The notes under the pieces are model-generated. The model ran no database searches. It was not told where the DNA came from and saw only the letters and a list, made by a program, of their open reading frames with translations. The translations under genes and the position numbers were made by a program. A stretch of DNA of 64,000 nucleotides, from NCBI RefSeq assembly GCF_016735585.2, contig NZ_JAERSE020000001.1, forward strand, positions 1,116,001 to 1,180,000. The letters run 5' to 3'. Below are positions 50,604 through 64,000 of this stretch, one piece after another (the first letter of the stretch is position 1; each line of letters opens with the position of its first letter). This DNA comes from Chryseobacterium tagetis. Its GTDB lineage: Bacteria > Bacteroidota > Bacteroidia > Flavobacteriales > Weeksellaceae.

Positions 50604-52412
50604 TTATGCTTTTGCTCCTCTTTCCACTCTTTTTCTTTCTTCTTCAGAAAGGATTTTCTTTCTCATACGGATGAAGTTTGGAGTTACCTCGATCGCTTCA
50701 TCGCCCTGGATATATTCCATACATTCTTCAAGAGAGAATAAGATTTTTGGTGCTACACCGGTATCTTTATCTTTACCCGAAGCTCTCATGTTGTTCAGCT
50801 GTTTTGCTTCTACGATGTTTACAACAAGGTCACCCGGCTTATTCTGCTCCCCGATGATCATCCCTGCATAGATCTCCTCACCCGGATCTACGAAGAACTT
50901 CCCTCTGTCCTGTAGTTTAGCAATAGAATATTCAGTTGCAGGCCCCTGTGTTTTGCTGATCAATACTCCATTGTTTCTTCCCGGAATAGCGCCTTTGAAA
51001 GGCTTGTATTCTGTGAAACGGTGTGCCATAATAGCTTCCCCTGCAGTAGCGGTCAACATCTGAGAACGCAATCCGATCAATCCTCTTGAAGGAATTTCGA
51101 ATTCCATGTGCTGCATCTCCCCTTTAGTTTCCATAATGTGAAGATCTCCTTTTCTCTGCGTTGCCAAATCGATCACTCTTGAAGCAAATTCTTCAGGAAC
51201 GTCAACAACTAAAGATTCATACGGCTCTAATTTTTGTCCATTTTCATCTTCTCTCAAAATAACCTGTGGCTGACCAATGGTCATTTCATACCCTTCTCTT
51301 CTCATCGTTTCGATCAAAACTGACAAGTGAAGAATCCCTCTACCGAATACTAAGAAAGTGTTCGCATCATCAGTCTGCTGAACTCTTAATGCCAGGTTCT
51401 TCTCTAATTCTTTCGTTAATCTTTCTTTCAGGTGATTAGAAGTTACATACTTACCATCTTTACCGAAGAAAGGTGAATTGTTGATAGAGAACGTCATGTT
51501 CAGGGTAGGCTCATCAATTGCCGTTCTTTCCAATGGCTCAGGATTTTCAAGATCTACAAACGAATCTCCGATCTGGAAAGCATCAAAACCTACTACCGCA
51601 CAGATATCTCCTGCTTTTACTTCAGTTACTTTTTTCTTTCCTAATCCTTCGAAAACGTATAGTTCTTTTACTTTTCCTTTTACCACTTTTCCGTCTGCCT
51701 GTGCAAGACCGATCCATTGAGATTCCTTAAGCTCCCCTCTTGTTACTTTTCCGATCGCAATTCTTCCCAAGAAAGAAGAGAAATCAAGAGAAGTGATCTG
51801 CATCTGAAGGTTACCTTCAGTTACTTTAGGTTCCGGAACATATTGTAAAATACCATCCAATAACGGTAAAATATCTTCTGTCTGTTCTAATGAAGTGTTG
51901 AACCATCCTTGCTTAGAAGAACCGTAGAACGTTGGGAAATCCAATTGCTCCTCAGTAGCCTCAAGGTTGAAGAACAGATCAAATACCTGATCGTGAACCT
52001 CATCCGGACGGCAGTTTGGCTTATCAACTTTGTTGATCACTACCAATGGTCTTAGTCCTAGTTCCAATGCTTTCTGAAGTACGAATCTTGTCTGTGGCAT
52101 TGGTCCTTCGAACGCATCCACCAACAAAATAACCCCGTCAGCCATTTTCAATACTCTTTCTACTTCCCCACCAAAATCGGCGTGACCAGGAGTATCGATT
52201 ACGTTAATTTTCGTGTCTTTATAAGTAACAGAAATATTCTTGGATAAGATCGTGATCCCTCTTTCTCTTTCAAGATCATTGTTATCCATAATTAATTCTC
52301 CACTCTCCTGGTTTTCTCTGAAAATATTGGTAGCGTGGATGATTTTGTCAACCAAGGTAGTCTTACCGTGGTCAACGTGTGCGATAATCGCAATATTTCT
52401 AATGTTTTGCAT
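50604..52412 (-). CDS. typA: Ribosome-associated GTPase TypA/BipA
   Basis: A 602-residue translational GTPase that aids ribosome assembly and stress adaptation. The P-loop is in IIAHVDHGKTTLVDK, G2 in RERGITI, G3 DTPGHADFGGE, G4 NKVDKPNCRP, then domains II-III and the TypA C-terminal domain with PSRGLIGLRSQMLTAT and the basic end RMRKKILSEEERKRVERGAKA. EF-G-type domains IV and a distinct C-terminus separate it from LepA. It has a -7 box 19 bases upstream of the ATG and its own terminator. Confidence 0.95.
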   Translation of the reverse strand: MQNIRNIAIIAHVDHGKTTLVDKIIHATNIFRENQESGELIMDNNDLERERGITILSKNISVTYKDTKINVIDTPGHADFGGEVERVLKMADGVILLVDAFEGPMPQTRFVLQKALELGLRPLVVINKVDKPNCRPDEVHDQVFDLFFNLEATEEQLDFPTFYGSSKQGWFNTSLEQTEDILPLLDGILQYVPEPKVTEGNLQMQITSLDFSSFLGRIAIGKVTRGELKESQWIGLAQADGKVVKGKVKELYVFEGLGKKKVTEVKAGDICAVVGFDAFQIGDSFVDLENPEPLERTAIDEPTLNMTFSINNSPFFGKDGKYVTSNHLKERLTKELEKNLALRVQQTDDANTFLVFGRGILHLSVLIETMRREGYEMTIGQPQVILREDENGQKLEPYESLVVDVPEEFASRVIDLATQRKGDLHIMETKGEMQHMEFEIPSRGLIGLRSQMLTATAGEAIMAHRFTEYKPFKGAIPGRNNGVLISKTQGPATEYSIAKLQDRGKFFVDPGEEIYAGMIIGEQNKPGDLVVNIVEAKQLNNMRASGKDKDTGVAPKILFSLEECMEYIQGDEAIEVTPNFIRMRKKILSEEERKRVERGAKA

Positions 52413-52430
52413 AAAAGATTTTTACGGGTG

Positions 52431-52438
52431 CAAAAATA
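52431..52438 (-). promoter_or_regulatory. -7 box of typA
   Basis: The minus strand reads TATTTTTG, a TAnnTTTG match, 18 bases before the ATG at 52412. Confidence 0.6.
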
Positions 52439-52599
52439 GTGATTTTTAATGAAAAACTCACTAATAAGTTTTGATAATTAACAAATTCATAATGAGAAGG
52501 TTAAAACAAAAGCCTTTCTTAAGCCCCTACCATTGAGCTTATTATCATCATATTACAACTAAAAACTGTAAATCCCAGATTAAGTTTTTATGACCAATC

Positions 52600-52857
52600 T
52601 CAATATTTTTTTTCAAAAAAGTAAATCAAAGCGGCCTGAATTAAAACAATGAATCCGAATTTCAGTAAAAACGAAGTCTTGGAAATCTTGTGCCGGAAGA
52701 TCAGCATCGCCACAGCAGATCCGATGCTTCCGCCCAGAAAAGAGACTCCCAATAAAGTACGTTCGGGTATTCTCCGGTGGTGCAGGACTGCCTTCCTTTT
52801 GTCCAGCCCGAAAAGAATACCACTGAAAATATTGATGAAAAGAAATACATAAATCAT
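52600..52857 (-). CDS. DUF1294 membrane protein
   Basis: An 85-residue membrane protein with two or three hydrophobic helices. The conserved stretch RRIPERTLLGVSFLGGSIGSAVAML and DKRKA before it match DUF1294. The open frame extends to an ATG at 52911, but the added 18 codons coincide with a perfect terminator hairpin (52881-52899) that closes the upstream peptide gene, so the ATG at 52857 is chosen. That gives the usual family length. The function is unknown. Confidence 0.75.
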   Translation of the reverse strand: MIYVFLFINIFSGILFGLDKRKAVLHHRRIPERTLLGVSFLGGSIGSAVAMLIFRHKISKTSFLLKFGFIVLIQAALIYFFEKKY

Positions 52858-52873
52858 TGCCGCAAAGCTAAAT

Positions 52874-52908
52874 AAAAAAAGAGTGTTACAACAACACTCT
52901 TCTTTTTT
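52874..52908 (-). terminator. Terminator of the double-glycine peptide gene
   Basis: GAGTGTT and AACACTC form a perfect stem around ACAAC, with T-rich sequence on its minus-strand 3' side. It starts just after the stop codon of the peptide gene at 52912-53118 and overlaps the longest possible ORF of the DUF1294 gene. Confidence 0.85.
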
Positions 52909-52911
52909 CAT

Positions 52912-53118
52912 TTATACGCATAGCATTATTTCGCACGGATCCTGTGGTGGAGCTTCTCCGCAAACAATGTCAAACGAACCGCAGCTGCTTGAGTCACCTG
53001 TTCCCCATCCCCACTGAAGCACACACGTCTGTGGATTTTTACATCTTACCATTCCTTTAGCAATTCCCCCCTGAATTGATCTCATTTCACTGCGTGAAAC
53101 TTTTTTTAATTTTTTCAT
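52912..53118 (-). CDS. Double-glycine leader, cysteine-rich peptide (bacteriocin-like)
   Basis: A 68-residue peptide. The leader KKLKKVSRSEMRSIQGG ends in Gly-Gly at residues 17-18, the site cut by peptidase-containing ABC transporters (C39 type) in bacteriocin-like precursors. Bacteroidota carry many short proteins with leaders like K-K-L-x-R-x-E-x-K-x-I-x-G-G. The mature 50-residue core has six cysteines with spacing C-x5-C-x13-C-x6-C-x8-C-x4-C and a Gly/Trp segment WGWGTG. No transporter, maturase or immunity gene is next to it, so it is an orphan precursor whose activity is unknown. A terminator follows at once. Confidence 0.7.
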   Translation of the reverse strand: MKKLKKVSRSEMRSIQGGIAKGMVRCKNPQTCVLQWGWGTGDSSSCGSFDIVCGEAPPQDPCEIMLCV

Positions 53119-53295
53119 GATTTATTTTTGATTAGTTTGAGTGATAAATGTATAAAAATATTTTCAGGAAAAAAGGGTTTTAGTGAAAATATTTCATTTT
53201 TTGATGAATTATTTTCATCAAAACCTTTATACTTACTTTGCCTTCAATTTTTTTTGTTTATTTCTTAAGATTTCTAGTAAACAAACTTAAAAAAT

Positions 53296-53327
53296 AAAGC
53301 CTGAGAAAAACTCAGGCTTTATTTTTT
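53296..53327. terminator. Terminator after hsdR
   Basis: AAAGCCTGAG/CTCAGGCTTT is a perfect 10-bp stem with A/T tracts on both sides, ending the restriction operon on the minus strand. Confidence 0.85.
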
Positions 53328-53344
53328 ATCATAAAATCATTTTT

Positions 53345-56300
53345 CTATATGCTAATAACTTGTTTTATCGTATTAAAAAATGCCTGATAAAAAGAAGAAT
53401 CCTGAGCATAGAGTTTATACAGTTCGAGTTCTTGCTTTCTCTGTTGCGCCATCACATCATCAAGAATTTTCTTTAAAGCCAATTCTCTGTTTTGGTCATC
53501 AACATTTTGTGCAACTTTCATTTCAAAATCAGGGTGCGCCTGTACAGATTTGCTTAAAGACAAGAATTTTACCCTTTGATCTTCTGGTGTCGCTTCCCAA
53601 CCCTGAAACCATCTCTCATTAAAACCATTAATAATTGCGTCTAGCTCATCTTTTTCTTCTTCTCCGTGAGCACCTCTAGCATTAGGATTTTGAGGTCTTA
53701 GTTCTGTTTCTTCATCATCCAGATTAATAGAAACATTAAGCTTGGTACGTTCTAATCCATAAGTTGAGAGATCAACAGACTCAAGCAATTCATCCAGCAA
53801 ATCTGATTGCGTATCTTTTACCGCCATTTTAGGAATCAGGAATTTCAGAAACCAGAATAATGATTCCCAGCCTGTATATTTAAAATCTACTGATAACAGA
53901 GAAGCCACTTGTCCATAAATCTTTACAAACTGCTTCGCTTTAATTTTATAATCTGCTTTTTGTTTATCATCCAAGTCTAGTTCATCCGCAAATCTTTTAG
54001 CAGAAACATCAATAATGGGACTTAAAAGTTGTGCATCTGCACCTTTAAAATATTTCTCATTAAAATCATCTACTTCCGATTGTTCATAGATTCCGGAATC
54101 GTCCAAACTATCTTTCAGTTCGTGCAGTACATTAATATCTGTAGCACCGCTCAGGCTGGTTGCCGTGTAAAATGGATCAAATGATTTCTGAATATCTTCA
54201 ATAGAGTTAAAGAAATCCAAAACAAATAAATCCTCTGTCTTTTTATTGAGTTTATTGGCAGAACGGTTTAATCGTGATAAAGTCTGTACTGCCAATACAC
54301 CTTGTAGTTTTTTATCTACATACATTACCGAAAGTTTCGGCTGGTCAAATCCTGTCAGATATTTATTCGCAACTACAAGCATTCGGTATTCATCGGTATC
54401 AAACTGGTCTTTGGTTTCACTCTCAGAAAAACCATTCATTTGAGCTTCTGTATATTTAATACCATCAACTTCTTTTTCTCCCGAAAAGGCAATCACAATT
54501 TTAAATGGATTTCCTCTTTTAGCCAACAGCTGGTTCAAAGCCTGATAGTATCGGATGGCTGATTCGATGCTTTGCGTTACTACCATTGCTTTGGCTTTAC
54601 CGCTTAGCTTTTTCTGATTGACCACAGCACTGGTAAAATGATCCAGCATAATCTCGGCTTTCGTGCCAATAGTCTGTTTATGTTTTTCTACATATGCTTT
54701 CAATTTTTTCTGCGCTTTGGAAGTATCAAACAATGGATTATCTTCTATAGACTTTTCCAGCTCATAATAGCTTTTATAAGTCGTATAATTAGCCAAAACA
54801 TCTAAGATAAACCCTTCTTCAATCGCCTGTTTCATAGAATACAGATGAAATGGTTTAAATGAACCATCCTCCTGCTTCACTCCAAACTTCTCCAAAGTCG
54901 AATTTTTAGGAGTAGCTGTAAAAGCAAAATAAGAAGCATTTTTGGTCATCTTTCTCGCGTGCATTGCTTGCAGCATCATATCCTGATAGTCTTCAGCATC
55001 TACATCTTCACCTTTGTTGCCAATGGCTTCATTCAGTTTATCTGCTGAACTTCCTGATTGCGAACTATGCGCTTCATCAATAATCACTGCAAATTGCTTT
55101 CCTGTCATATCTGCAATTCCATCGATGATAAAAGGAAACTTTTGAATCGTTGTAATAATAATCCTTTTCCCATTTTCCAAAGCCGATTTTAAATCAGCAG
55201 CTTTATAGGCCGGCGCCACAATATTTTTTACTTCTGAAAACTCCTTGATATTATCTCTCAACTGTTTGTCTAGTAATCTTCGGTCAGTTACTACAATCAC
55301 CGAATCAAAGAGTGGTTGATTCACCGATTTATTTCCAGCTACGGCTTCATTTTTCGGATAAGCTTCTATGAGTTGATATGCCAACCAGGTAATCGAATTG
55401 GATTTTCCCGAACCCGCACTGTGCTGAATGAGATAAGTTTTTCCAGCACCGTTTTGTGAAGTATCTTTTAACAGCCCTCGAACCACATCTAGCTGGTGGT
55501 AACGTGGAAAGTATAACGTTTTCTTGCTCAAAGCATCATTTTCACCTCCATCAAAACGCACAAAATGCTGAATAATATTGGCAACACTTTCCCTCTTCAA
55601 AATATCCTGCCAGAAATAGGTCGTCTTATGACCAAATGGATTGGGTGGATTGCCCTTACCATAATTATCTCCCAGATTGAAAGGCAGAAAGAAAGTCTTG
55701 GCACCATCCAGCTTGGTGGTCATATAGATTTCGTCTGTATCTACTGCAAAATGTACGATACATCTACCAAAGTTCAATAGAGGCTGTGTAGTATCTCTTT
55801 TATTTTTATATTGATTGACACCGTGAACTTTTGCATTCTGACCCGTCCAGCGGTTCTTCAATTCTATGGTGGAAATGGGAATACCATTGATAAAAATTAC
55901 CATATCGATTTCCTCCAGAGGATTGGAAACCGAATACCGCAATTGCCTTGTCACACTGAACTGGTTCTTTTCAAAATTATCTTTGATACTCTGACTGCTA
56001 TTTTGCAAAGGCGCCACATAAAACAACGTAAAATGCGCATCATCTACCGCTAAACCTTTTCTCAACAACCTGAGAATGCCATACTTCTTTACAAGCTTAT
56101 CGAAACGGTCAAGAATTTTTATTTTCCAGTCGCTTTGGCGTTTGAGTTTTTCCAGCTCTTCTGATTGTGTCTGCTCCAGAAAATCCCAAAAGCGCACCTC
56201 ATCCAAACCATATCTTGGGTTGTAATCTGATGGGTTGCCGATGCGATAACCATTACCTGCATATGTAGCGGTAGGCTCAGCAACAGTTCCGTTTTTTATA

Positions 56301-56374
56301 TCTTCGGTCGAAATACCACAGAGCGCTTTTTCTATGGCAGTTTCAAGTGCGAGTTCGTTAGTTTTACTGGTCAT
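53345..56374 (-). CDS. hsdR: Type I restriction endonuclease subunit R
   Basis: A 1009-residue motor-nuclease of a type I restriction system, which cuts unmodified DNA after ATP-driven translocation. The N-terminal nuclease domain has the PD-(D/E)xK core with Asp157 (EEIDMVIF) and E171-x-K173 (ISTIELKN). The helicase part has the Walker A loop HSAGSGKSNS at about 318-327, DEAH in VIIDEAHSSQSG, and FTATPKNS, followed by RecA domain 2 (QTLSRLNR) and the HsdR C-terminal helical region. It overlaps the DUF262 gene upstream by 11 bases and is the last gene of the operon. Confidence 0.93.
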   Translation of the reverse strand: MTSKTNELALETAIEKALCGISTEDIKNGTVAEPTATYAGNGYRIGNPSDYNPRYGLDEVRFWDFLEQTQSEELEKLKRQSDWKIKILDRFDKLVKKYGILRLLRKGLAVDDAHFTLFYVAPLQNSSQSIKDNFEKNQFSVTRQLRYSVSNPLEEIDMVIFINGIPISTIELKNRWTGQNAKVHGVNQYKNKRDTTQPLLNFGRCIVHFAVDTDEIYMTTKLDGAKTFFLPFNLGDNYGKGNPPNPFGHKTTYFWQDILKRESVANIIQHFVRFDGGENDALSKKTLYFPRYHQLDVVRGLLKDTSQNGAGKTYLIQHSAGSGKSNSITWLAYQLIEAYPKNEAVAGNKSVNQPLFDSVIVVTDRRLLDKQLRDNIKEFSEVKNIVAPAYKAADLKSALENGKRIIITTIQKFPFIIDGIADMTGKQFAVIIDEAHSSQSGSSADKLNEAIGNKGEDVDAEDYQDMMLQAMHARKMTKNASYFAFTATPKNSTLEKFGVKQEDGSFKPFHLYSMKQAIEEGFILDVLANYTTYKSYYELEKSIEDNPLFDTSKAQKKLKAYVEKHKQTIGTKAEIMLDHFTSAVVNQKKLSGKAKAMVVTQSIESAIRYYQALNQLLAKRGNPFKIVIAFSGEKEVDGIKYTEAQMNGFSESETKDQFDTDEYRMLVVANKYLTGFDQPKLSVMYVDKKLQGVLAVQTLSRLNRSANKLNKKTEDLFVLDFFNSIEDIQKSFDPFYTATSLSGATDINVLHELKDSLDDSGIYEQSEVDDFNEKYFKGADAQLLSPIIDVSAKRFADELDLDDKQKADYKIKAKQFVKIYGQVASLLSVDFKYTGWESLFWFLKFLIPKMAVKDTQSDLLDELLESVDLSTYGLERTKLNVSINLDDEETELRPQNPNARGAHGEEEKDELDAIINGFNERWFQGWEATPEDQRVKFLSLSKSVQAHPDFEMKVAQNVDDQNRELALKKILDDVMAQQRKQELELYKLYAQDSSFYQAFFNTIKQVISI

Positions 56375-58184
56375 TAAGATTTATAGGCTTATTATTAAAC
56401 TTCCACGTTTCAAAAACTAAATTTAGTAATTTCTCCTGTCTTTGATTAATAGATTCTTTATCCCATTTTTTAAATTCAAAACCGTAATCACTTTTAAATC
56501 TATTCACAGCAGTGTTTGCACCTATCTGAAATTCATCGTCAAGAAGTTGAGTAGAAATAATTCCAGAATTTTTATACTCATTTTGTTTCTTTTCAAACCA
56601 ATCGTTACTCAAATCATTGAAATTATTGACTGCTTGATTTATTGTTGACTCAATCAAAGTAACGTTTCCTAAACGATATACGTAATTAGAATAATCGTGT
56701 TTACTTTCAAATTCCTCAGTTAAAACATCATTCTTTGGAGTTTGAGGTAATATATGTTCAATTTGTAAATTATACAGATAATCTTTTCCTTTTATCGGAA
56801 AATTAGATTTTGATAATATTGTATTCTCAATCATTCCCAATACATATCTTTCTCTGTAAAGTGGACTATAATGATAGTGAGTTAAAGTTGGGAATTTAAC
56901 TAAAAATTCACCTAACCTTTCTTTGATATAAGGTACCATATTTTGTTCGATAACTTCTGCGACCTCATCAATAGTATTTTTATTTCTGAGTTTTATTGCC
57001 CATCTGGTAAATTGATTTTCATTATTTTTCGCTTGAATTCCTAAACTCACACTATAAAAAAAGAAACTTTCTATTTGCTTGCCTAAATACTCAATAACAT
57101 CTGTAGTTGCTCTTTCATTAAGTGCCATCAATAGGATGAGATGTTGTCTCGATTTATATTTATTAATAAATCCTATGTTGGTAATATTAGGATATTCTCC
57201 ACCGTCTTTTACTAATTCTGTTGCAATAACTAAATCCGAATACCTTTTAGACATTTTTTTTAACTCCTTAGCAAAAATAAGTGGTTGAGTTTCATACTTA
57301 GTATCATTTCTACCTCTTTCAGATAAAAACCATTTATAAATATCATCTTCTCTTAGAATTCCATCATAGTATCTGGACATTAAAAAATATCTAAGAAATC
57401 GTAAAGGCGTGTTGTCTTCTTTACATTTTTGAAGATTATGAACTATATCTTTCCATATATCCTTTATGTGATTAAAATCCGCAGGTTTAGCTTTACTAAA
57501 CAAAAGATTTTTCACCAAATCCATTGCATTGAGCCCAGCTCCCCTTTGATTAATTGTTTCGAAAATCTTTAATGCACTACTTAAATTTTCTGATTCAATT
57601 AGAACTAATTCTATTTTAGTGAGAAAATATTTTGCATAGTTCGTTATTGCCTCAACGCTATCATTTAAATAAGTCTCTAAATGATTCTTGATTTTATAGT
57701 AGGCTTGCTCCATCTTAATAATCGAAGGAGACTTCAAATCAGTGAAATCCGTTTTAGAAATTAATGATTCCAAATAACCTTTACTTTCTTCATACTGCAA
57801 TTCTAACCGCATTTGAGTTTCATCACTATCCATATCAAAATCAGATAGAAGTTCCTCAATATTTTTAAGATATTGCTCTTGCTTTCTGTCTAAATCAACT
57901 TCTTGTAATAAATCACGAAAGGCACATAAAGTGAGAATTATTGTAGTAAGTCTCTGTTGTCCATCTATAACATCAAACTTTTCTTTATTAGCTACAATAA
58001 TTATTGACCCAATGAAGTAACCTTTTTGTTTTGTTACGTCTTCATCGTATTCATTATCTATATCTATCAGAAACTGTTCTACCTGATCTTCTGGTTTCCA
58101 AACATATTCTCTTTGATAATCCGGGACTATAAAGAAATAATCTTTTAATTTTGATATACTTTTAACTTGTGCGTCTATTTCCAT
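56364..58184 (-). CDS. DUF262/DUF1524 protein (GmrSD-like) inside the type I RM operon
   Basis: A 606-residue soluble protein with the two halves of the GmrS-GmrD family: DUF262 at the N-terminus, with YQREYVWK (23-30) and DGQQRLTT (74-81), which bind a nucleotide, and DUF1524 (HNH-like) with IEHILPQ at about residues 475-481 and YRLGNVTLIESTINQAVNN further on. GmrSD enzymes cut DNA bearing modified bases, and single-chain relatives such as BrxU and SspE occur in defence islands. Here it is nested between hsdS-side genes and hsdR, starts within the previous stop codon (TAATG), and overlaps hsdR by 11 bases. Whether it acts on modified phage DNA is inference. Confidence 0.82.
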   Translation of the reverse strand: MEIDAQVKSISKLKDYFFIVPDYQREYVWKPEDQVEQFLIDIDNEYDEDVTKQKGYFIGSIIIVANKEKFDVIDGQQRLTTIILTLCAFRDLLQEVDLDRKQEQYLKNIEELLSDFDMDSDETQMRLELQYEESKGYLESLISKTDFTDLKSPSIIKMEQAYYKIKNHLETYLNDSVEAITNYAKYFLTKIELVLIESENLSSALKIFETINQRGAGLNAMDLVKNLLFSKAKPADFNHIKDIWKDIVHNLQKCKEDNTPLRFLRYFLMSRYYDGILREDDIYKWFLSERGRNDTKYETQPLIFAKELKKMSKRYSDLVIATELVKDGGEYPNITNIGFINKYKSRQHLILLMALNERATTDVIEYLGKQIESFFFYSVSLGIQAKNNENQFTRWAIKLRNKNTIDEVAEVIEQNMVPYIKERLGEFLVKFPTLTHYHYSPLYRERYVLGMIENTILSKSNFPIKGKDYLYNLQIEHILPQTPKNDVLTEEFESKHDYSNYVYRLGNVTLIESTINQAVNNFNDLSNDWFEKKQNEYKNSGIISTQLLDDEFQIGANTAVNRFKSDYGFEFKKWDKESINQRQEKLLNLVFETWKFNNKPINLNDQ

Positions 58185-58963
58185 TATCTATAAGTTCTTT
58201 TTACAACAATTCTATAATCTGGTTTCCAATCTGTATTTTCACACGCGGTGATTATTCTATTATCATTATAATGTTCACTATCTGCTTTTCTGTCTTGTTG
58301 TACTTTTTCCAATTTAAGATAAACATTTGAGTCTTCTATTTCTTTTAATGAAAACTTCGTTTGTGAATGGTTATGACAACATACTAATACTCGCCAGGGC
58401 TGAGAATGTATAGTATGAAAATCTACAAATTCAGGAAGTCTTTTATTTTCATATATATTTTTAACAATCAATGGTCTCACAATTGAACAACCAAGTTGTT
58501 GTTCATTATATTCTCTAGAGCATTTATCTCTTCCACGATGTAAAAAATTGTCAACACCATTATAAAAAAGATAATAAGGAATTGCTCCAAAATTTTCAAG
58601 TTCAGATAATAATTCCCATTGTTGTTTTTCTTTTTGAGCATAGAAAAGAGAATGATATCTTCTATCTTTTTTCAAAAGTTTTGCCTGTAAAGGATACCAA
58701 ATATATTGATCAATTTCAGTTTCGACAAACAGATCTATATCACTGCCTGTAATAGATTCTTTGTAACCTGATCTTGCATAAACATCAAAATTATTTAGAT
58801 AATTATTCTGATGATACTCCACAATATCGGCTATAATATCATTCGTGATTCCTTCTTCTTTATCGTTTAAACCTAGAGAATGTTTTCGACAGATTCTTTT
58901 CCAAACCTTATCTGCTATTTCTTCAAAAAGTTGACAGCGAAGAGACATTGCTAGAAAACTCAT
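58184..58963 (-). CDS. DUF6615-like putative PD-(D/E)xK nuclease
   Basis: A 259-residue soluble protein. The region ITGSDIDLF (Asp75, Asp77) followed about 16 residues later by YPLQAKLL (Gln93-x-Lys95) resembles a PD-(D/E)xK nuclease core in which QxK replaces ExK. IPYYLFYNG at about residue 128 and the N-terminal KEEGITND match what I recall of DUF6615 proteins (E-E-x-I-T-D, Q-A-K, L-Y-I-F-Y); this assignment is from memory. It begins 24 bases after the DUF4917 stop and ends on the DUF262 start. If active it would add a second nuclease to the restriction locus. Confidence 0.55.
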   Translation of the reverse strand: MSFLAMSLRCQLFEEIADKVWKRICRKHSLGLNDKEEGITNDIIADIVEYHQNNYLNNFDVYARSGYKESITGSDIDLFVETEIDQYIWYPLQAKLLKKDRRYHSLFYAQKEKQQWELLSELENFGAIPYYLFYNGVDNFLHRGRDKCSREYNEQQLGCSIVRPLIVKNIYENKRLPEFVDFHTIHSQPWRVLVCCHNHSQTKFSLKEIEDSNVYLKLEKVQQDRKADSEHYNDNRIITACENTDWKPDYRIVVKRTYR

Positions 58964-58987
58964 AACTATTTATAATTCGTTTAAAAA

Positions 58988-60061
58988 TCACCTCCAAATA
59001 TTTGCTGTCTGTGCATTATACACATTCACTTTACAATCAAATTTATATTGAATATTTTTGATATGTTCTAAATCTGCTTCAGAATAAACTCCAATATAAA
59101 TACTAAATAGTTTTTCTCCAGACTGTGCACCACGCAATGAAGCTTTATTTACAGCGTCAATAATATGTTCATCATATTCACCAAAATTGAAACCGAAAGA
59201 AACCAAAGAACCTGTAATTTTAGACAAGCTCTCGTAACAGAATGTCAAATATCTATTATGGTAAATATGATTAAGCTTCTCAGTTCCGTTTCCTGCTGTG
59301 ACAAATATTGGATATTCTTTATTATCCATTCGTTCTTTAATGTTGTCTAGTAGATATTTACTATCTCTGTAAACTTCTTTCTCTATTTCTGTTCCTGTGT
59401 CAAAAATCGGGAGAGTTCCGTGTAAATAGTAAACAGTTTGCTCTTCTTTATACTTACCCCATAATAGTTCTCCAAATTCGGCATCTTCTCCTCTTCGGGT
59501 TTCTACCGGATTTAAATGTTCTCTCCCAAAACCATCTATTGAACTATGCGGATTATTTCTCATTAAAATCCAATACAAAAGCAAATCATAATTAGTAGAA
59601 AACACTTTTCCACCATTAGATAAATATTCCTGTAGGAAATTGTAACAAGATTGGCTTTCAGCATCAGGTACAGCAAAGACGTGTTCGGGATGTAAGGAAC
59701 TGACTGCTTCAATTAAACTTTCTTGTAGTCGTTGATTGGCGTCCTGCAATGCTTTTACCATTACTCCGGTATCATCAAATGTTTTGGCTATTTCGATAAA
59801 ATTATCAAGTTGTCTCATTACCAATTCGAAATTCTTGGTGTTGATAACTTCAAACAACTTTGATAAAGTAGCATCTTCTAATTTTTCAATAAAATCATAA
59901 AGCGCATTATAGGAAAATATTTTATGGTCGTACGCCATACTAAAACCATTTCCCATTATTAAATGTTTGGGATAAGATCTTTTATTTAGTTTTTTAATAA
60001 CTGATTGATAATCTTGAAGATCATCAAATTTAAAATCTTTAGGAATGTTGTCTTTTGCCAT
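58988..60061 (-). CDS. DUF4917 protein with SIR2-like motif set
   Basis: A 357-residue protein of the DUF4917 type. Motifs in order are IMGNGFSMAYD (GNGFS at 37-41), STNYDLLLYW (TNYD at 156-159), YYLHGTLP (LHG at 213-215) and SFGFNFGEYDEHI (289-299). The same order in SIR2 domains builds the NAD pocket (GAGxS, TTNYD, HG, GxSxxD), so a SIR2-like NAD-binding or NADase role is suggested but not shown. A Lys-rich N-terminus precedes the domain. It lies 30 bases after the gene at 60092-60544 and 24 bases before the DUF6615-like gene, in the middle of the restriction operon. Confidence 0.72.
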   Translation of the reverse strand: MAKDNIPKDFKFDDLQDYQSVIKKLNKRSYPKHLIMGNGFSMAYDHKIFSYNALYDFIEKLEDATLSKLFEVINTKNFELVMRQLDNFIEIAKTFDDTGVMVKALQDANQRLQESLIEAVSSLHPEHVFAVPDAESQSCYNFLQEYLSNGGKVFSTNYDLLLYWILMRNNPHSSIDGFGREHLNPVETRRGEDAEFGELLWGKYKEEQTVYYLHGTLPIFDTGTEIEKEVYRDSKYLLDNIKERMDNKEYPIFVTAGNGTEKLNHIYHNRYLTFCYESLSKITGSLVSFGFNFGEYDEHIIDAVNKASLRGAQSGEKLFSIYIGVYSEADLEHIKNIQYKFDCKVNVYNAQTANIWR

Positions 60062-60091
60062 AAGTTAATTTTCGTTTCTTGGTTATCATTT

Positions 60092-60544
60092 TTAGTTTAT
60101 ATACTTTTTCAATTTCTCTCTAATAATCTTCTCATCTTCATCTTTATTCCTCAACAACCGTTTCCCATTCGTATGAGCAAATTCCGAATAATCAAACTCA
60201 ATTAATTCCAATTCATTTCTGGGTATTTCAAGCGGTTCAGCTTTGGTTTGCAACCGCTTCTTCTCGGCTTTGGGCTGTATCTGTGTTCTTTTTTCTCTTC
60301 CAAAAAACCAATTTGTGTTTTTTGTTTTTCTTTCAGCAATTAGATGGGGTAAAAGATGTAGCTCGTTTCGCTCATCCAACTGTCGTAAAACTTTCCTGAT
60401 GGGCAAACCGTTTTTCTCATCCTTAGAAAAGATATTTGCCTCAATGAAGTAGGGCATCAAATCTTTCGCAGGAATTATGGATACTGATGGATTATTGTAA
60501 AAATAATCTTTAACCACTTTTTGAATTGCTCTCACCTTTTCCAT
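60092..60544 (-). CDS. Small basic protein following hsdS
   Basis: A 150-residue, highly charged protein. The N-terminal half (KVRAIQKVVKDYFYNNPSVSI to IRKVLRQLDERNELHLLPHL) is helical with the outline of a winged helix, as if it binds DNA; a basic Lys/Arg-rich linker (QPKAEKKRLQTKAEPLE) and an acidic-basic tail follow. I do not recognise a named family. Similar small genes occur next to hsdS in other Bacteroidota restriction loci as I recall, so it may be a regulator or accessory factor. It begins 7 bases after hsdS stops. Confidence 0.6.
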   Translation of the reverse strand: MEKVRAIQKVVKDYFYNNPSVSIIPAKDLMPYFIEANIFSKDEKNGLPIRKVLRQLDERNELHLLPHLIAERKTKNTNWFFGREKRTQIQPKAEKKRLQTKAEPLEIPRNELELIEFDYSEFAHTNGKRLLRNKDEDEKIIREKLKKYIN

Positions 60545-60551
60545 TGTTCCT

Positions 60552-61826
60552 TTAATTAATTTTCACCTTCCCCGTCACCACCTGATCAATCAGCACCGTT
60601 TTATACTCCTTCAGCTTTTCTATTTCCTGCTCTTTTAACGTTATGGCTTTAGCGATTTTTGCTTCTATGTCTTCTAGGTAGATTACTATTTGTGTTTGTT
60701 CTGCTAATGGAGAAATTGGAAAATAAAAGTTTTTTAAATTTTGGAAATTTAATCCTTCTCGTCCTCCTCCTTGTTGCTGGAAGAATACTTGGAACTGACC
60801 TAAAGAAGAACTTAGTAATAAATTTAAGTAGTTCGGGTAGATATTTTTAGGCCTTACTATACATACGTGCTGATTCACATTAGCTTCAAAATCATATTTA
60901 AAAATATTACAACGTCCAATTGAGCCCCCTGTTATATTTAAAAGAATATCATTCTTTTGAACCTTACTATTTGACATTTCTCTATGTGTTTTTTCAGCAA
61001 TGTAAGCAACATTCCCAAATTCAAAACGGTCAAAGTAGACGTTTTGACTTCTTAGTAATGGAATACCTTCATCTAAATAAGTAGTTGCTCCTCCCGACGG
61101 TGTAATTCCACTTCCTATTTTGCTTGCGTGATACTTCAACTTCCTCACCTCCCAATGTTCCGGAATTTCCCCAATCCAATCCACACCGCTATCTTTCATC
61201 GCTACGGTAGCATCCAAACCTTTGGTTACGGCTTCCTGTATCAGGATTTGTCGGCGTTCTTTGAGCAGCTCTATTTCTTTTTGGCGGATGCCAATGGTCT
61301 GGTCTATCTTGGCAGTTTTATTATCAAGAAATTCGGCAATGGCTTGTTGTTCATCAAATGATGGTACAACCAGATGAGAGTCTGCCAAATCACTATAATT
61401 AATTGTCTGTCTTACTCCAGCACCTAACGTTTTCATAAAAACAATATCATACATTCTAAGAAGCCATCTGTAATAATTTTTGTTTAATCCTTTTTTACTT
61501 TGTAGAATAATATAACCCGAACTCACGACAACATTAATTGTTGATAGCCCAATTCGTAAGCTTTTTAAGTCATAATTCATATTAAGTGGATTCAACAGAA
61601 ATTCTCCTTCGTTTAAAACTTGGTAAGATAATTTTGTTGCTTCTGTAATCTTTTCATCATCTTTATAAACAACTTCTCCAAAACTTATAGAACCAGAATT
61701 TAAAGAAGCATCCGTAATTTTTCTTTTCTCTTTAAAGAGTCTTTTAAATCTTACAACTTCCCATCCCTCAGGAATTTCCCTAATCCAATCTGCACCGCTG
61801 TCTTTATAGGCTTCGTATCTTTTCAT
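60552..61826 (-). CDS. hsdS: Type I restriction specificity subunit S
   Basis: A 424-residue specificity subunit that chooses the DNA target of the type I methyltransferase/endonuclease. It has the usual pseudo-symmetric layout: first target-recognition domain after KDSGADWIREIPEGWEV, a central conserved helix pair (EQQAIAEFLDNKTAKIDQTIG, KEIELLKERRQILIQEAVTKGLD), a second domain after KDSGVDWIGEIPEHWEV, and a final conserved helix (LEDIEAKIAKAITLKEQEIEKLKEYKTVLIDQVVTGKVKI). The two half-repeats at DNA level could allow domain exchange. It begins 3 bases after hsdM. Confidence 0.92.
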   Translation of the reverse strand: MKRYEAYKDSGADWIREIPEGWEVVRFKRLFKEKRKITDASLNSGSISFGEVVYKDDEKITEATKLSYQVLNEGEFLLNPLNMNYDLKSLRIGLSTINVVVSSGYIILQSKKGLNKNYYRWLLRMYDIVFMKTLGAGVRQTINYSDLADSHLVVPSFDEQQAIAEFLDNKTAKIDQTIGIRQKEIELLKERRQILIQEAVTKGLDATVAMKDSGVDWIGEIPEHWEVRKLKYHASKIGSGITPSGGATTYLDEGIPLLRSQNVYFDRFEFGNVAYIAEKTHREMSNSKVQKNDILLNITGGSIGRCNIFKYDFEANVNQHVCIVRPKNIYPNYLNLLLSSSLGQFQVFFQQQGGGREGLNFQNLKNFYFPISPLAEQTQIVIYLEDIEAKIAKAITLKEQEIEKLKEYKTVLIDQVVTGKVKIN

Positions 61827-61829
61827 CTG

Positions 61830-64000
61830 CTAAAAATTTAAGATTTCTGCCAACAATCCATCACCTTCTTTTTCCAGTGCCAAAATATCCTCGGTTACTT
61901 CTTCCAAAGAACGCAAAGGGGCAGGCTGGTAAAAATATTTATTAAAGCTCAGCTCATAGCCAATTTTTACGCTGTCCAGCGCCATCCAGCTTTCTTCGGC
62001 ATAAGGTTGCACTTCCCGCAGATAATAATCCTGTATATTTTCTTTCAGCGGGATGCTTTCGCTGTCACGCAGGTCGCTTTCGGTTTCATAAATGATATAT
62101 TCGCCTTTCGCTTTGTTTGCAAAATACCCGTAATAAGACAGGTCTTTTTCTGTACAGCCCAAAAATTCCAACAGAGCATCCAGCTTTTGTCCGTTCAGCT
62201 TTTCGGTTTTTTTGATGACTTTCTCTGCCGTTTCATCATACCAGCTCACGGCATCTAAAATTTGTTTCTTTTCAGAGGCAGACAGTTTGGTTTTATCCTG
62301 TTTCAGCACTTCATCTACTTTCGCAGTGAAAATATTGAAGTTGGTAAATTCGGCTGTTCCCAAAACTTCCATCAGTCGCACCGCATTCTGGTACAGTTCT
62401 TCCTGCTTTTGCCAAGCTTCCTTTTTCAGAAAGGCAGTCAGTTGTTTGGCATTGATGTTTAGTTCGTGCTTGTCGATATAGTCGGCAATGGCTTTTTTGT
62501 GAGCTTCCAATCCGCTGTAAACTTCCATTCCGTACTGCTCAAAAAGATACTGTGAAAACTCAGGCTGTGACTTGTCCCATTTTAGTACTTCAATTTTTTC
62601 TTTAGTAAACTGGGCTTTCAATCGCTTCGGTCTTTCGATATTGATTTTATAATACCCAAAATCACGGTTGTCAAATACCTTGCTCGCCAGTTTTTGTTCG
62701 CCCTTTTTTTCCTTTTCACTCAGCTCTAGATAGCAGTTTACAATATCACTGATATGCGTTTTGCTGAGTTCACAGTTTTTATTCCCAAGATTCTTGCGCA
62801 GTTTCTGATACATTTCGCTGGCATCAATCAGCTGTACTTTTCCTTTTCGTTGCGCAGGTTTGTTATTGGTCAATATCCAGATATAGGTGGTAATTCCCGT
62901 ATTGTAAAAGATATTGTTCGGCAACTGAATAATCACATCCAGCAAATCATTTTCAATAATATAGCGTCTGATATTGCTCTCGCCACCGCCGGCATCACCT
63001 GTAAACAGGCTCGAACCGTTATGTACCGAAGCAATACGGCTTCCGATTTTGTTTTTATCGGTCAGGGCTTTCATCTTGTCCACCATTTCCATCAGAAACA
63101 GCAACTGCCCGTCACTCGAACGAGGTACGGCATCCACATCTTCTTCCTCGCCCCAGTAATTTTTCAGTTTAATCTTAAAACGGTTGTCAATAACGTATTT
63201 TCCGTCTTTGATGTATTTCTGTTCACTCGCCCAGCTTTTTCCGTATGGCGGATTAGAAAGCATAAAGTCGAACTTCGTTCCTGCAAATTCATCGGTAGAA
63301 AGCGTAGAACCCACCTTGATATGCCCCGGGTCTTTGCCCTTGATCATCATATCCGATTTACAGATGGCGTAGGTTTCATCATTCACTTCCTTCCCAAACA
63401 TATACACAGAAGTATTAGTCGCTTTGATTTCCCCCTCGGAATCGGTAATGAAATTTTCAGACTCCGTCAGCATTCCACCCGTTCCGCAAGCAGGATCATA
63501 AATCGTAATCACAGAAGGAATTTGATTTTTAATCGGTTCAAAAACCATATGGGTCATCAGATCAATTACTTCTCTCGGCGTATAGTGTTCTCCTGCTTCC
63601 TCATTGTTTTCCTCATTGAATTTGCGGATCAGCTCTTCAAAAACATAACCCATTCCAAGATTGGTCAACGCAGGCAGTTTTCTACCACCGGAATCCAGCT
63701 TTTCAAAAGGTGTCAGATTAATATCTGGCGATGTAAATTTCTCCAGTACATCCAGCAAAACATCTTTGTCTGCCATATGTTTGATTTGTGCACGCAGATT
63801 AAATTTGCTGATGATTTCCTGTACGTTGGCACTGAAACCATTCAGATAATCTTCAAAATTCCCCAATAAAATTTGTTGACTGTTGGTCGCATTACCGTGT
63901 AGGCTCTGCAAAGTCCATTCGCTGGTGTTGTAGAAAACATAGCCTGAAGCGGCGGTCATTCCCTTATCATCCCATTCAGTAAACTTCATTGTATTTTTTT
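61830..64000 (-). CDS. hsdM: Type I restriction methyltransferase subunit M (5' end outside window)
   Basis: The adenine-N6 methyltransferase subunit of a type I system. From the first in-window ATG (63989) 719 residues follow: FYNTSEWTL near residue 19, MGYVFEELIRKF, EEAGEHYTPREV, SAM motif YDPACGTGGML (164-174) and catalytic SNPPYGKSW (245-253). A C-terminal extension of about 200 residues is longer than in most HsdM proteins. Family members of this type carry about 100 further N-terminal residues including an LLRG helix, which are missing here; the frame stays open to base 64000, so the gene is taken as 5'-partial. A run of seven A residues just upstream could also hide a frameshift. Confidence 0.88.
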   Translation of the reverse strand, partial: KNTMKFTEWDDKGMTAASGYVFYNTSEWTLQSLHGNATNSQQILLGNFEDYLNGFSANVQEIISKFNLRAQIKHMADKDVLLDVLEKFTSPDINLTPFEKLDSGGRKLPALTNLGMGYVFEELIRKFNEENNEEAGEHYTPREVIDLMTHMVFEPIKNQIPSVITIYDPACGTGGMLTESENFITDSEGEIKATNTSVYMFGKEVNDETYAICKSDMMIKGKDPGHIKVGSTLSTDEFAGTKFDFMLSNPPYGKSWASEQKYIKDGKYVIDNRFKIKLKNYWGEEEDVDAVPRSSDGQLLFLMEMVDKMKALTDKNKIGSRIASVHNGSSLFTGDAGGGESNIRRYIIENDLLDVIIQLPNNIFYNTGITTYIWILTNNKPAQRKGKVQLIDASEMYQKLRKNLGNKNCELSKTHISDIVNCYLELSEKEKKGEQKLASKVFDNRDFGYYKINIERPKRLKAQFTKEKIEVLKWDKSQPEFSQYLFEQYGMEVYSGLEAHKKAIADYIDKHELNINAKQLTAFLKKEAWQKQEELYQNAVRLMEVLGTAEFTNFNIFTAKVDEVLKQDKTKLSASEKKQILDAVSWYDETAEKVIKKTEKLNGQKLDALLEFLGCTEKDLSYYGYFANKAKGEYIIYETESDLRDSESIPLKENIQDYYLREVQPYAEESWMALDSVKIGYELSFNKYFYQPAPLRSLEEVTEDILALEKEGDGLLAEILNF

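What the first reader, a model, noticed from the sequence alone, without database searches (positions are those of the whole stretch)
53345..64000. Compound type I restriction operon with four nested accessory genes
hsdM-hsdS are separated from hsdR by a small basic protein, a DUF4917 protein, a DUF6615-like protein and a DUF262/DUF1524 protein. Gaps are 3, 7, 30, 24, -1 and -11 bases, so the seven genes look like one transcript. Type I loci often carry one extra gene, but four in a row, three of them defence-associated families, suggests a layered system: modification-dependent and modification-sensitive restriction plus a possible NAD-linked effector. The layout is seen directly; joint function is inference.
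Basis: partly seen in the sequence, partly recalled or inferred. Interest (0 to 1): 0.78.

Follow-up and report, generated by a model that had tools for sequence, protein, structure and literature searches.

The report
Restriction operon with swappable defence cargo
A bacterial DNA-cutting defence operon carries four extra genes in its middle, and comparison with relatives suggests this spot is a slot in which whole anti-virus systems are exchanged; the principle is known, but the contents and the signs of swapping are new detail.

Summary
In detail: hsdM-hsdS-[150 aa]-DUF4917-DUF6615-DUF262/DUF1524-hsdR is one close-packed run with the stated gaps; hsdM starts just outside the window. The nested genes are best read as cargo in a slot between hsdS and hsdR, not as one fixed system. 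The full order recurs in one other genome found (Chryseobacterium Leaf394). In 19 related operons not chosen for DUF4917 the slot is occupied in 15 (never by DUF4917), all 37 cargo ORFs lie on the hsd strand, and contents differ: Menshen, Kiwa, Tiamat-like, GmrSD pairs. Four operons form a square in which backbone pairs and cargo pairs disagree, so parts were exchanged. DUF4917 (PADLOC PDC-S21) models as a SIR2 fold closest to SIR2-HerA, with NADase-type motifs kept; slot-associated copies form one clade yet scatter over HsdR and HsdM trees. The DUF262 protein keeps GmrSD motifs. The 'small basic protein' is a relative of a 242-aa putative nuclease that lacks about 92 residues in frame. Genes between hsdS and hsdR are known (RloF, TgvAB, DarTG2), so this is a new variant. 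Co-transcription, activity and joint function are untested.

The parts
61830..64000 (-). hsdM, type I methyltransferase subunit; 719 aa from the first ATG in the window, 783 aa in all (start 181 bases beyond the window end)
   Evidence: N6_Mtase 2.7e-58, PADLOC MTase_I 2.3e-233; full frame L004:9830-12181; NPPYG and DPACGTG motifs
60552..61826 (-). hsdS, specificity subunit (424 aa)
   Evidence: Methylase_S 9.4e-23, two stretches; about 41% identical to hsdS of L037, L040 and L057, whose hsdM are 87-94% identical, so a different specificity is likely (inference)
60092..60544 (-). 150-aa ORF: relative of a 242-aa putative DNA-binding plus nuclease-like protein, lacking about 92 aa of its middle in frame
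   Evidence: Aligned to L057:9242-9970; L057 residues 110-172 match PvuRts1I-like_N weakly, E 5.9e-4, under cut-off
58988..60061 (-). DUF4917 / PADLOC PDC-S21 (357 aa): SIR2 fold, putative NADase effector; GNGFS (37), TNYD (156), LHG (213) kept
   Evidence: DUF4917 9.5e-41, PDC-S21 1.1e-108; AF2 pLDDT 85.4; best VIA row 8w9l_A, SIR2 of SIR2-HerA type, Z 17.4, 289 aligned, 4.7 A; motifs
58184..58963 (-). DUF6615-like (259 aa): putative PD-(D/E)XK-type nuclease (G-x-D-x-D ... Q-x-K)
   Evidence: DUF6615 9.4e-8; G73, D75, D77, Q93 and K95 invariant in three aligned sequences; structure model failed, pLDDT 36.6
56364..58184 (-). DUF262/DUF1524 GmrSD-family protein (606 aa), HEC-06-like
   Evidence: GmrSD_N 2.7e-37, GmrSD_C 1.4e-17; HEC-06 1.4e-74; YQR, DGQQR, FETIN, EHILP motifs
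53345..56374 (-). hsdR, type I restriction/translocase subunit (1009 aa)
   Evidence: HSDR_N 3.1e-18, SWI2_SNF2 4.7e-26; GSGKS, DEAH and EEIDMV...ELK motifs
53288..53328 (-). terminator-like hairpin just after hsdR
   Evidence: 18-pair stem, L004 1328-1288; consensus match only

Best explanation
This is a type I restriction-modification operon of a Bacteroidota subfamily whose hsdS-hsdR junction works as a cargo slot. Shown: the genes, their packing, the varied contents of the slot in relatives, and the conflict between backbone and cargo grouping. Inferred: the operon is read as one transcript; HsdMSR methylates self and cuts DNA lacking its mark; the GmrSD-family protein cuts DNA with modified bases that escapes type I; DUF4917 is a SIR2-type NADase that depletes NAD+ as a last resort; the DUF6615-like protein is an accessory nuclease; the 150-aa ORF is a decayed, probably catalytically dead remnant of another nuclease. 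Cargo is gained, lost and exchanged by recombination between operons, with hsdM and constant parts of hsdS on one side and hsdR (often with DUF262) on the other as shared flanks. The cargo is assumed to act largely independently of HsdMSR.
For: Slot: 15 of 19 operons with HsdR 63-90% identical, not chosen for DUF4917, have an ORF of 120 aa or more between hsdS and hsdR; 37 of 37 ORFs of 80 aa or more there are on the hsd strand; 3 of the 4 others have bare junctions of 93-150 nt. In 12 of the 15 some cargo protein matches a defence-associated family: Menshen NsnA+B+C in L039, Kiwa KwaA+B in L044, TmtA in L037, L040, L101 and L106, DUF262 proteins in several. Exchange: HsdR and HsdM trees pair L004 with L037 and L040 with L057, but cargo pairs L004 with L057 and L037 with L040. 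Fourfold-site identity L004 vs L037: DUF262 134/155 against hsdR 134/295, Fisher p 2e-18. DUF4917: 8 slot-associated copies form one clade, support 100/99, while the label needs at least 4 (HsdR) or 3 (HsdM) changes on starred branches. SIR2 fold. DNA similarity in the three operon pairs compared stops near the operon ends. Precedent: TgvAB, whose protection did not need HsdR cutting (PMC11411939, passages).
Against: Transcription, restriction and NADase activity were not tested. The exact Bacteroidota promoter pattern gave 1 hit in 18 kb, inside the operon, with 1.56 expected, and none upstream of hsdM. Two terminator-like sites lie inside the operon on its strand. ORF calls in the survey are mechanical. 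None of the 19 unselected operons carries DUF4917, so this cargo is rare. Between L004 and L057 DUF4917 is as diverged at fourfold sites (52/97) as hsdM (120/222), and GHKL between L037 and L040 (107/186) is near hsdM (112/222), so the square does not need recent cargo transfer; exchange of backbone genes would explain it as well. DUF262 follows the backbone pairing but is less diverged than hsdR in all six pairs; codon constraint is an alternative to exchange. The L040-L057 pairing has SH-aLRT 94 and 92, unstarred. In PMC11411939 tgvAB alone protected less than the whole cluster. The nuclease readings of DUF6615 and the 242-aa protein rest on motifs and weak hits.
Confidence: 0.7

Rival explanations
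1. Guardian model: slot-borne DUF4917 senses inhibition or loss of the type I enzyme (as PrrC does for EcoPrrI) and then destroys NAD+, so that phages that block restriction trigger abortive infection.
For: All 8 slot-associated DUF4917 copies are one clade across Weeksellaceae, Flavobacteriaceae, Saprospiraceae and Bacteroidaceae. DUF4917 is the first ORF after hsdS in L058-L060, L062, L063 and the second in L004 and L057. The nearest folds are SIR2 subunits that partner an ATPase, HerA. PrrC precedent (PMC12707154, passages).
Against: On HsdR and HsdM trees the DUF4917 label is scattered, so it is not tied to one enzyme lineage. In Bacteroides ihuae (L061) an intact frame persists beside a 98-aa hsdR relic with no hsdM or hsdS recognised on the stretch. 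33 of the 44 loci show no hsdR-like ORF by BLAST with the window HsdR (several are short contigs).
Confidence: 0.2
2. The four nested genes are one dedicated multi-gene defence system that happens to sit in a type I operon.
For: Same order in L057 with overlapping or close-packed frames.
Against: Only one recurrence found. DUF262 and DUF4917 each occur in the slot without the others. A DUF6615 relative sits on a Hymenobacter plasmid near a HipA module, with no listed RM gene within 7 kb (PLSDB tables are incomplete). The 150-aa member lacks its middle here, and DUF262 is frameshifted in L057.
Confidence: 0.12
3. Passive hitch-hiking: the cargo is mostly decaying and of no use, kept only because the operon is expressed.
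For: The 150-aa ORF lacks the middle of its relative, DUF262 is broken in L057, hsdR is a relic in L061 and fragmented in L129.
Against: Expected motifs are intact in DUF4917 and DUF262; DUF4917 is 94% identical in protein between L004 and L057 while only 52 of 97 fourfold sites match, which points to purifying selection.
Confidence: 0.08

Closest known systems
TgvAB embedded in the VPI-2 type I system of Vibrio cholerae (PMC11411939; passages read)
   Same: DUF262-family type IV system inside a type I operon; complementary sensing of modified and unmodified DNA proposed
   Different: Two DUF262 proteins and no SIR2 or DUF6615 genes; here one GmrSD-type protein plus three other genes
DarTG2 between hsdS and hsdR in EPEC, RptR island (PMC12255303; passages and one section read)
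   Same: Complete second module between hsdS and hsdR; authors call the site a potential recombination hotspot
   Different: Toxin-antitoxin cargo and a 79-aa RptR repressor gene at the head; here no ORF of 70 aa or more lies between the upstream 213-aa gene and hsdM; other cargo, other phylum
R-linked ORFs such as RloF (DUF262) of Campylobacter jejuni (as told in PMC4619093 and PMC11411939, passages; the 2005 source not read)
   Same: DUF262 gene between hsdS and hsdR
   Different: As told there, a single gene; here a four-gene stack
PDC-S21 and HEC-06 of the guilt-by-embedding catalogue (PADLOC profiles; preprint not held; PDCs and HECs described in PMC12988326, passages)
   Same: DUF4917 matches PDC-S21 and DUF262 matches HEC-06 over nearly full length
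   Different: I could not see in which host systems the catalogue found them; their stacking in one hsd operon is from this work
SIR2 subunit of SIR2-HerA (Nezha)
   Same: Fold and NADase-type motifs
   Different: No HerA gene in the operon; 13-18% sequence identity
PrrC in EcoPrrI (PMC12707154, passages)
   Same: Effector gene embedded in a type I locus
   Different: tRNA nuclease, not SIR2; the guard link is described for PrrC and unknown here

Membership tests
Type I restriction-modification operon | hsdM, hsdS and hsdR with methylase, target-recognition, translocase and nuclease motifs | tested here: met
   Pfam/PADLOC; NPPYG, DPACGTG, GSGKS, DEAH, ELK
Type I restriction-modification operon | ATP-dependent restriction and adenine methylation at a specific site | not testable with these tools
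   needs methylome and restriction assays
GmrSD-family type IV restriction enzyme | DUF262 (QR, DGQQR, FxxxN) and DUF1524 (EHxxP) in one protein | tested here: met
   motif names from PMC11411939 and PMC12707154 passages
GmrSD-family type IV restriction enzyme | cleavage of modified-cytosine DNA | not testable with these tools
   biochemistry needed
SIR2-type defence NADase (DUF4917 protein) | SIR2 Rossmann fold | tested here: met
   22 PDB matches at E<=0.001, led by SIR2-HerA; Z 17.4, rmsd 4.7, 289 aligned; sequence profile alone weak, E 0.011
SIR2-type defence NADase (DUF4917 protein) | conserved N/D and H of the active site | tested here: met
   N157, D159, H214 invariant in the 25 aligned sequences, window included; their catalytic role is recalled, not tested
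SIR2-type defence NADase (DUF4917 protein) | NAD+ hydrolysis on infection | not testable with these tools
   needs assay
SIR2-HerA system | HerA ATPase encoded beside SIR2 | tested here: not met
   no HerA among the seven operon genes
DUF6615 family as PD-(D/E)XK nuclease | PD-(D/E)XK core fold | tested here: inconclusive
   motif kept in three sequences; AF2 model pLDDT 36.6; no PDB profile match
PrrC-type guardian of a type I enzyme | effector held off by, and activated on inhibition of, the Hsd complex | not testable with these tools
   needs genetics; patchy co-occurrence neither shows nor excludes it

The most novel reading that the evidence does not exclude
The slot-associated DUF4917 clade is a dedicated SIR2-type NADase partner of this type I family: it guards the Hsd complex and triggers NAD+ loss when phage inhibitors block restriction, which would make it an NADase counterpart of PrrC and would explain why this one clade stays in the hsdS-hsdR slot while other cargo is exchanged around it.
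Probability: 0.2. Interest if true: 0.8.

Novelty: new variant of a known kind. Interest (0 to 1): 0.5.

Why it matters
If the slot reading holds, type I operons of this family are natural expression cassettes that collect complete defence systems, so reading the hsdS-hsdR junction across Bacteroidota is a direct way to find new systems and to study how defence genes are exchanged. If the guardian reading holds, it links restriction to NAD+-based abortive infection.

Tried and rejected
DUF6615 in relatives: one search reported 9 of 197 genomes, but the weak rows (L009-L016, E 9e-5 to 8e-4) do not keep the motif; by sight, from recall, L009-L011 look like HD-domain proteins and L012-L016 like QueA. 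I count 2 of 197 as credible (own, and G120 = L008/L018 at 31-34% identity). A structure of the DUF6615 protein from two sequences failed. Sequence searches of solved structures gave nothing for DUF6615 (profile, E<=10) or DUF262 (E<=0.01) and only insignificant rows for the 242-aa relative (best E 0.4). Viral contigs gave no relative of DUF4917 or DUF6615 (single-sequence queries find close relatives only), phage records none of DUF4917; plasmids held 34 records with distant DUF4917 (under 60% identity) and none with the 150-aa ORF. The promoter pattern gave nothing upstream of hsdM. DUF6615 has no paper in the held library; DUF4917 has one, seen as a listing only. Searches for a SIR2 gene embedded in hsd operons (one listed paper checked by passages) and for cargo names together with hsdR (no paper) gave no matching report; two searches were seen as listings. 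The guilt-by-embedding preprint is not held, so whether it already lists DUF4917 in type I operons is unknown.

I considered the Leaf394 copy (L057) as proof of a fixed system and rejected that: with L037 and L040 it shows exchange instead.
Full report
What is there. Pfam and PADLOC name them hsdM, hsdS, an unnamed 150-aa protein, DUF4917 (PADLOC PDC-S21), DUF6615 (Pfam only), a DUF262/DUF1524 GmrSD-family protein (PADLOC HEC-06) and hsdR. hsdM starts 181 bases past the window end and has 783 aa. A terminator-like hairpin follows hsdR and another lies between the upstream gene and hsdM, but two weaker ones lie inside the operon. DNA similarity to L057 and L037 begins within 11 bases of the hsdM start and ends 13-19 bases short of the hsdR end, so the operon is the shared unit.

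The parts. Expected motifs of HsdM, HsdR, GmrSD and SIR2-type proteins are kept. The DUF4917 model (25 sequences, pLDDT 85.4) matches the SIR2 subunit of SIR2-HerA best (Foldseek E 1.6e-10; VIA Z 17.4, rmsd 4.7, 289 residues), then KomC, DSR2 and ThsA, among sirtuins. N157, D159 and H214 are invariant in the 25. The DUF6615-like protein keeps G-x-D-x-D ... Q-x-K in three sequences, which I read from recall as PD-(D/E)XK-like; its model failed. The 150-aa ORF aligns at both ends to a 242-aa protein of L057 but lacks about 92 residues between, in frame. The missing part holds most of the only weak domain hit of L057 (PvuRts1I-like_N, 5.9e-4, under cut-off) and recurs in a 225-aa protein of L055 and a 221-aa slot protein of L107 with a different N-terminal part. 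So the 'small basic protein' is probably a nuclease remnant.

The slot. Left out before counting: the window and six operons found through DUF4917 (L057-L060, L062, L063), L043 and L139 (no hsdS on the stretch), and the fragmentary hsdR loci L050 and L129. Among 19 operons with HsdR 63-90% identical, 15 have an ORF of 120 aa or more between hsdS and hsdR, 4 have one between hsdM and hsdS, and 37 of 37 ORFs of 80 aa or more between hsdS and hsdR are on the hsd strand; none of the 19 carries DUF4917. Among 35 more distant operons (under 56%) the figures are 17 of 35, 22 of 34, and 32 on the strand with 3 opposite. In 12 of the 15 at least one cargo protein matches a defence-associated family: TmtA (L037, L040, L101, L106), Menshen NsnA, NsnB, NsnC (L039), Kiwa KwaA, KwaB (L044), DUF262 proteins by BLAST or clustering (L037, L038, L040, L045, L048, L104, L105) and an M78 peptidase with weak capP/RmrA hits (L041); L042, L103 and L107 have none. 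In the distant set, L054 carries Septu PtuA and PtuB. System names beyond the PADLOC gene names are recalled.

DUF4917. It is rare: 2 of 197 family genomes and 5 of 395 phylum genomes, own included, one of the five with a stop in frame and one a weak partial match. A scan of the species-genome collection gave 44 loci. Eleven of the 44 show an hsdR-like ORF by BLAST with the window HsdR: six with DUF4917 between hsdS and hsdR, L061 with an hsdR relic, L088 with hsdR following on the same strand, and L078, L080, L087 with hsdR as convergent neighbour. In a tree of 42 rows (39 of the 44 loci plus L004, L017 and L026; frames under 300 aa and the duplicate L024 dropped), the eight slot-associated copies (window, L057-L063) are one clade, support 100/99. 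On quick trees of HsdR (27 rows) and HsdM (26 rows) the DUF4917 label needs at least 4 and 3 changes on starred branches. So one DUF4917 lineage belongs to this slot but is scattered over enzyme lineages.

The square. HsdR and HsdM trees pair the window operon (L004) with L037 (SH-aLRT 96 and 98) and L057 with L040 (94 and 92, unstarred). Yet L004 and L057 share the 150/242-aa gene, DUF4917 and DUF6615, while L037 and L040 share a GHKL protein and a TmtA protein; all four have DUF262 next to hsdR. Between L004 and L037 the DNA similarity restarts exactly at the DUF262 start codon. At least one exchange between hsdS and DUF262, or of the backbone genes, is needed. Fourfold-site identities vary along the operon: L004 vs L057 hsdM 120/222, DUF4917 52/97, DUF6615 48/62, hsdR 116/290; L037 vs L040 hsdM 112/222, GHKL 107/186, TmtA 227/261, hsdR 99/273. 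DUF6615 and TmtA are thus less diverged than the backbone, while DUF4917 and GHKL are about as diverged as hsdM. DUF262 follows the backbone pairing but is less diverged than hsdR in all six pairs, which exchange or codon constraint could both explain.

The place. In the genus, typA and yceI flank this region. In 36 of 48 genomes with both genes they are on one contig and strand; excluding our own, 27 of 35 have them under 5 kb apart and 8 have 12-90 kb; ours has 15.8 kb. I fetched six of these large intervals, four of them only in part, and ran 10 chosen proteins of four through Pfam: L141 has hsdR-, hsdS-, hsdM-type genes and a DUF262/DUF1524 gene, L142 an hsdR, L145 an hsdM and hsdR with an AAA_5 gene between them (hsdS by sight), L146 a methylase and a ResIII/endonuclease gene that I read as type III. 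L143 and L144 were not run. The site looks like a hotspot for restriction systems.

How it works. Best reading: a type I system with independently acting cargo read from one message. Type I covers unmodified DNA, the GmrSD protein modified DNA (TgvAB precedent: an HsdR nuclease mutant protected like the intact cluster, though tgvAB alone protected less; PMC11411939 passages), and DUF4917 would be a last-resort NADase. The guardian model is the most interesting alternative; the single slot clade favours it, while the scatter over enzyme lineages and the Bacteroides ihuae copy beside an hsdR relic speak against it.

What is known. Genes between hsdS and hsdR are known: RloF, TgvAB within a type I operon, and DarTG2, and the last paper already calls the site a potential recombination hotspot (PMC4619093, PMC11411939, PMC12255303; passages and one section). 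DUF4917 and DUF262 match catalogue entries of a guilt-by-embedding survey that I could not read. I found no report of this seven-gene layout, of a SIR2 assignment for DUF4917, or of the cargo square in searches of an open-access library, most of whose hits I saw only as listings. The novelty is in extent and detail, not in principle.

Noticed in passing
window 50604-64000 and L141-L146: The typA-yceI interval is a variable site in this genus: under 5 kb in 27 of 35 congeners, 12-90 kb in 8; of six large intervals fetched, three show type I genes and one type III-like genes.
   Followed up: partly
L057:11881-13706: In Chryseobacterium sp. Leaf394 the DUF262/DUF1524 gene is split by a frameshift, while the rest of the seven-gene order is there.
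   Followed up: partly
L061:9995-14627 (Bacteroides ihuae; same as L024): DUF4917 lies beside a 98-aa hsdR relic and two further genes that look, by sight, like an AAA ATPase and an RloB-type protein.
   Followed up: no
L088:3452-9462 (Calditrichaeota MAG): DUF262, a 217-aa gene, DUF4917 and an hsdR-like gene in a row on one strand, with DUF4917 outside the slot clade: a possible independent association.
   Followed up: no
window 52912-53118: 68-aa ORF with a basic start and an early GG, reminiscent by recall of a double-glycine leader peptide, just downstream of hsdR.
   Followed up: no
L129 (G228): Second copy of this hsdR in one genome, broken into several short frames.
   Followed up: no
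L029-L036: Proteins of about 101-123 aa in another genus of the family match the N-terminal part of the 150-aa ORF at 35-37% identity.
   Followed up: no
L042:9913-11709 and L062:6923-8725: Related proteins of about 600 aa, DUF262-like by sight, between hsdM and hsdS: a second insertion point in the operon.
   Followed up: no
G000:C3:700618-700815 and C1:392999-393175 (L002, L003): Two further HSDR_N matches in the window's own genome, one over the family cut-off.
   Followed up: no
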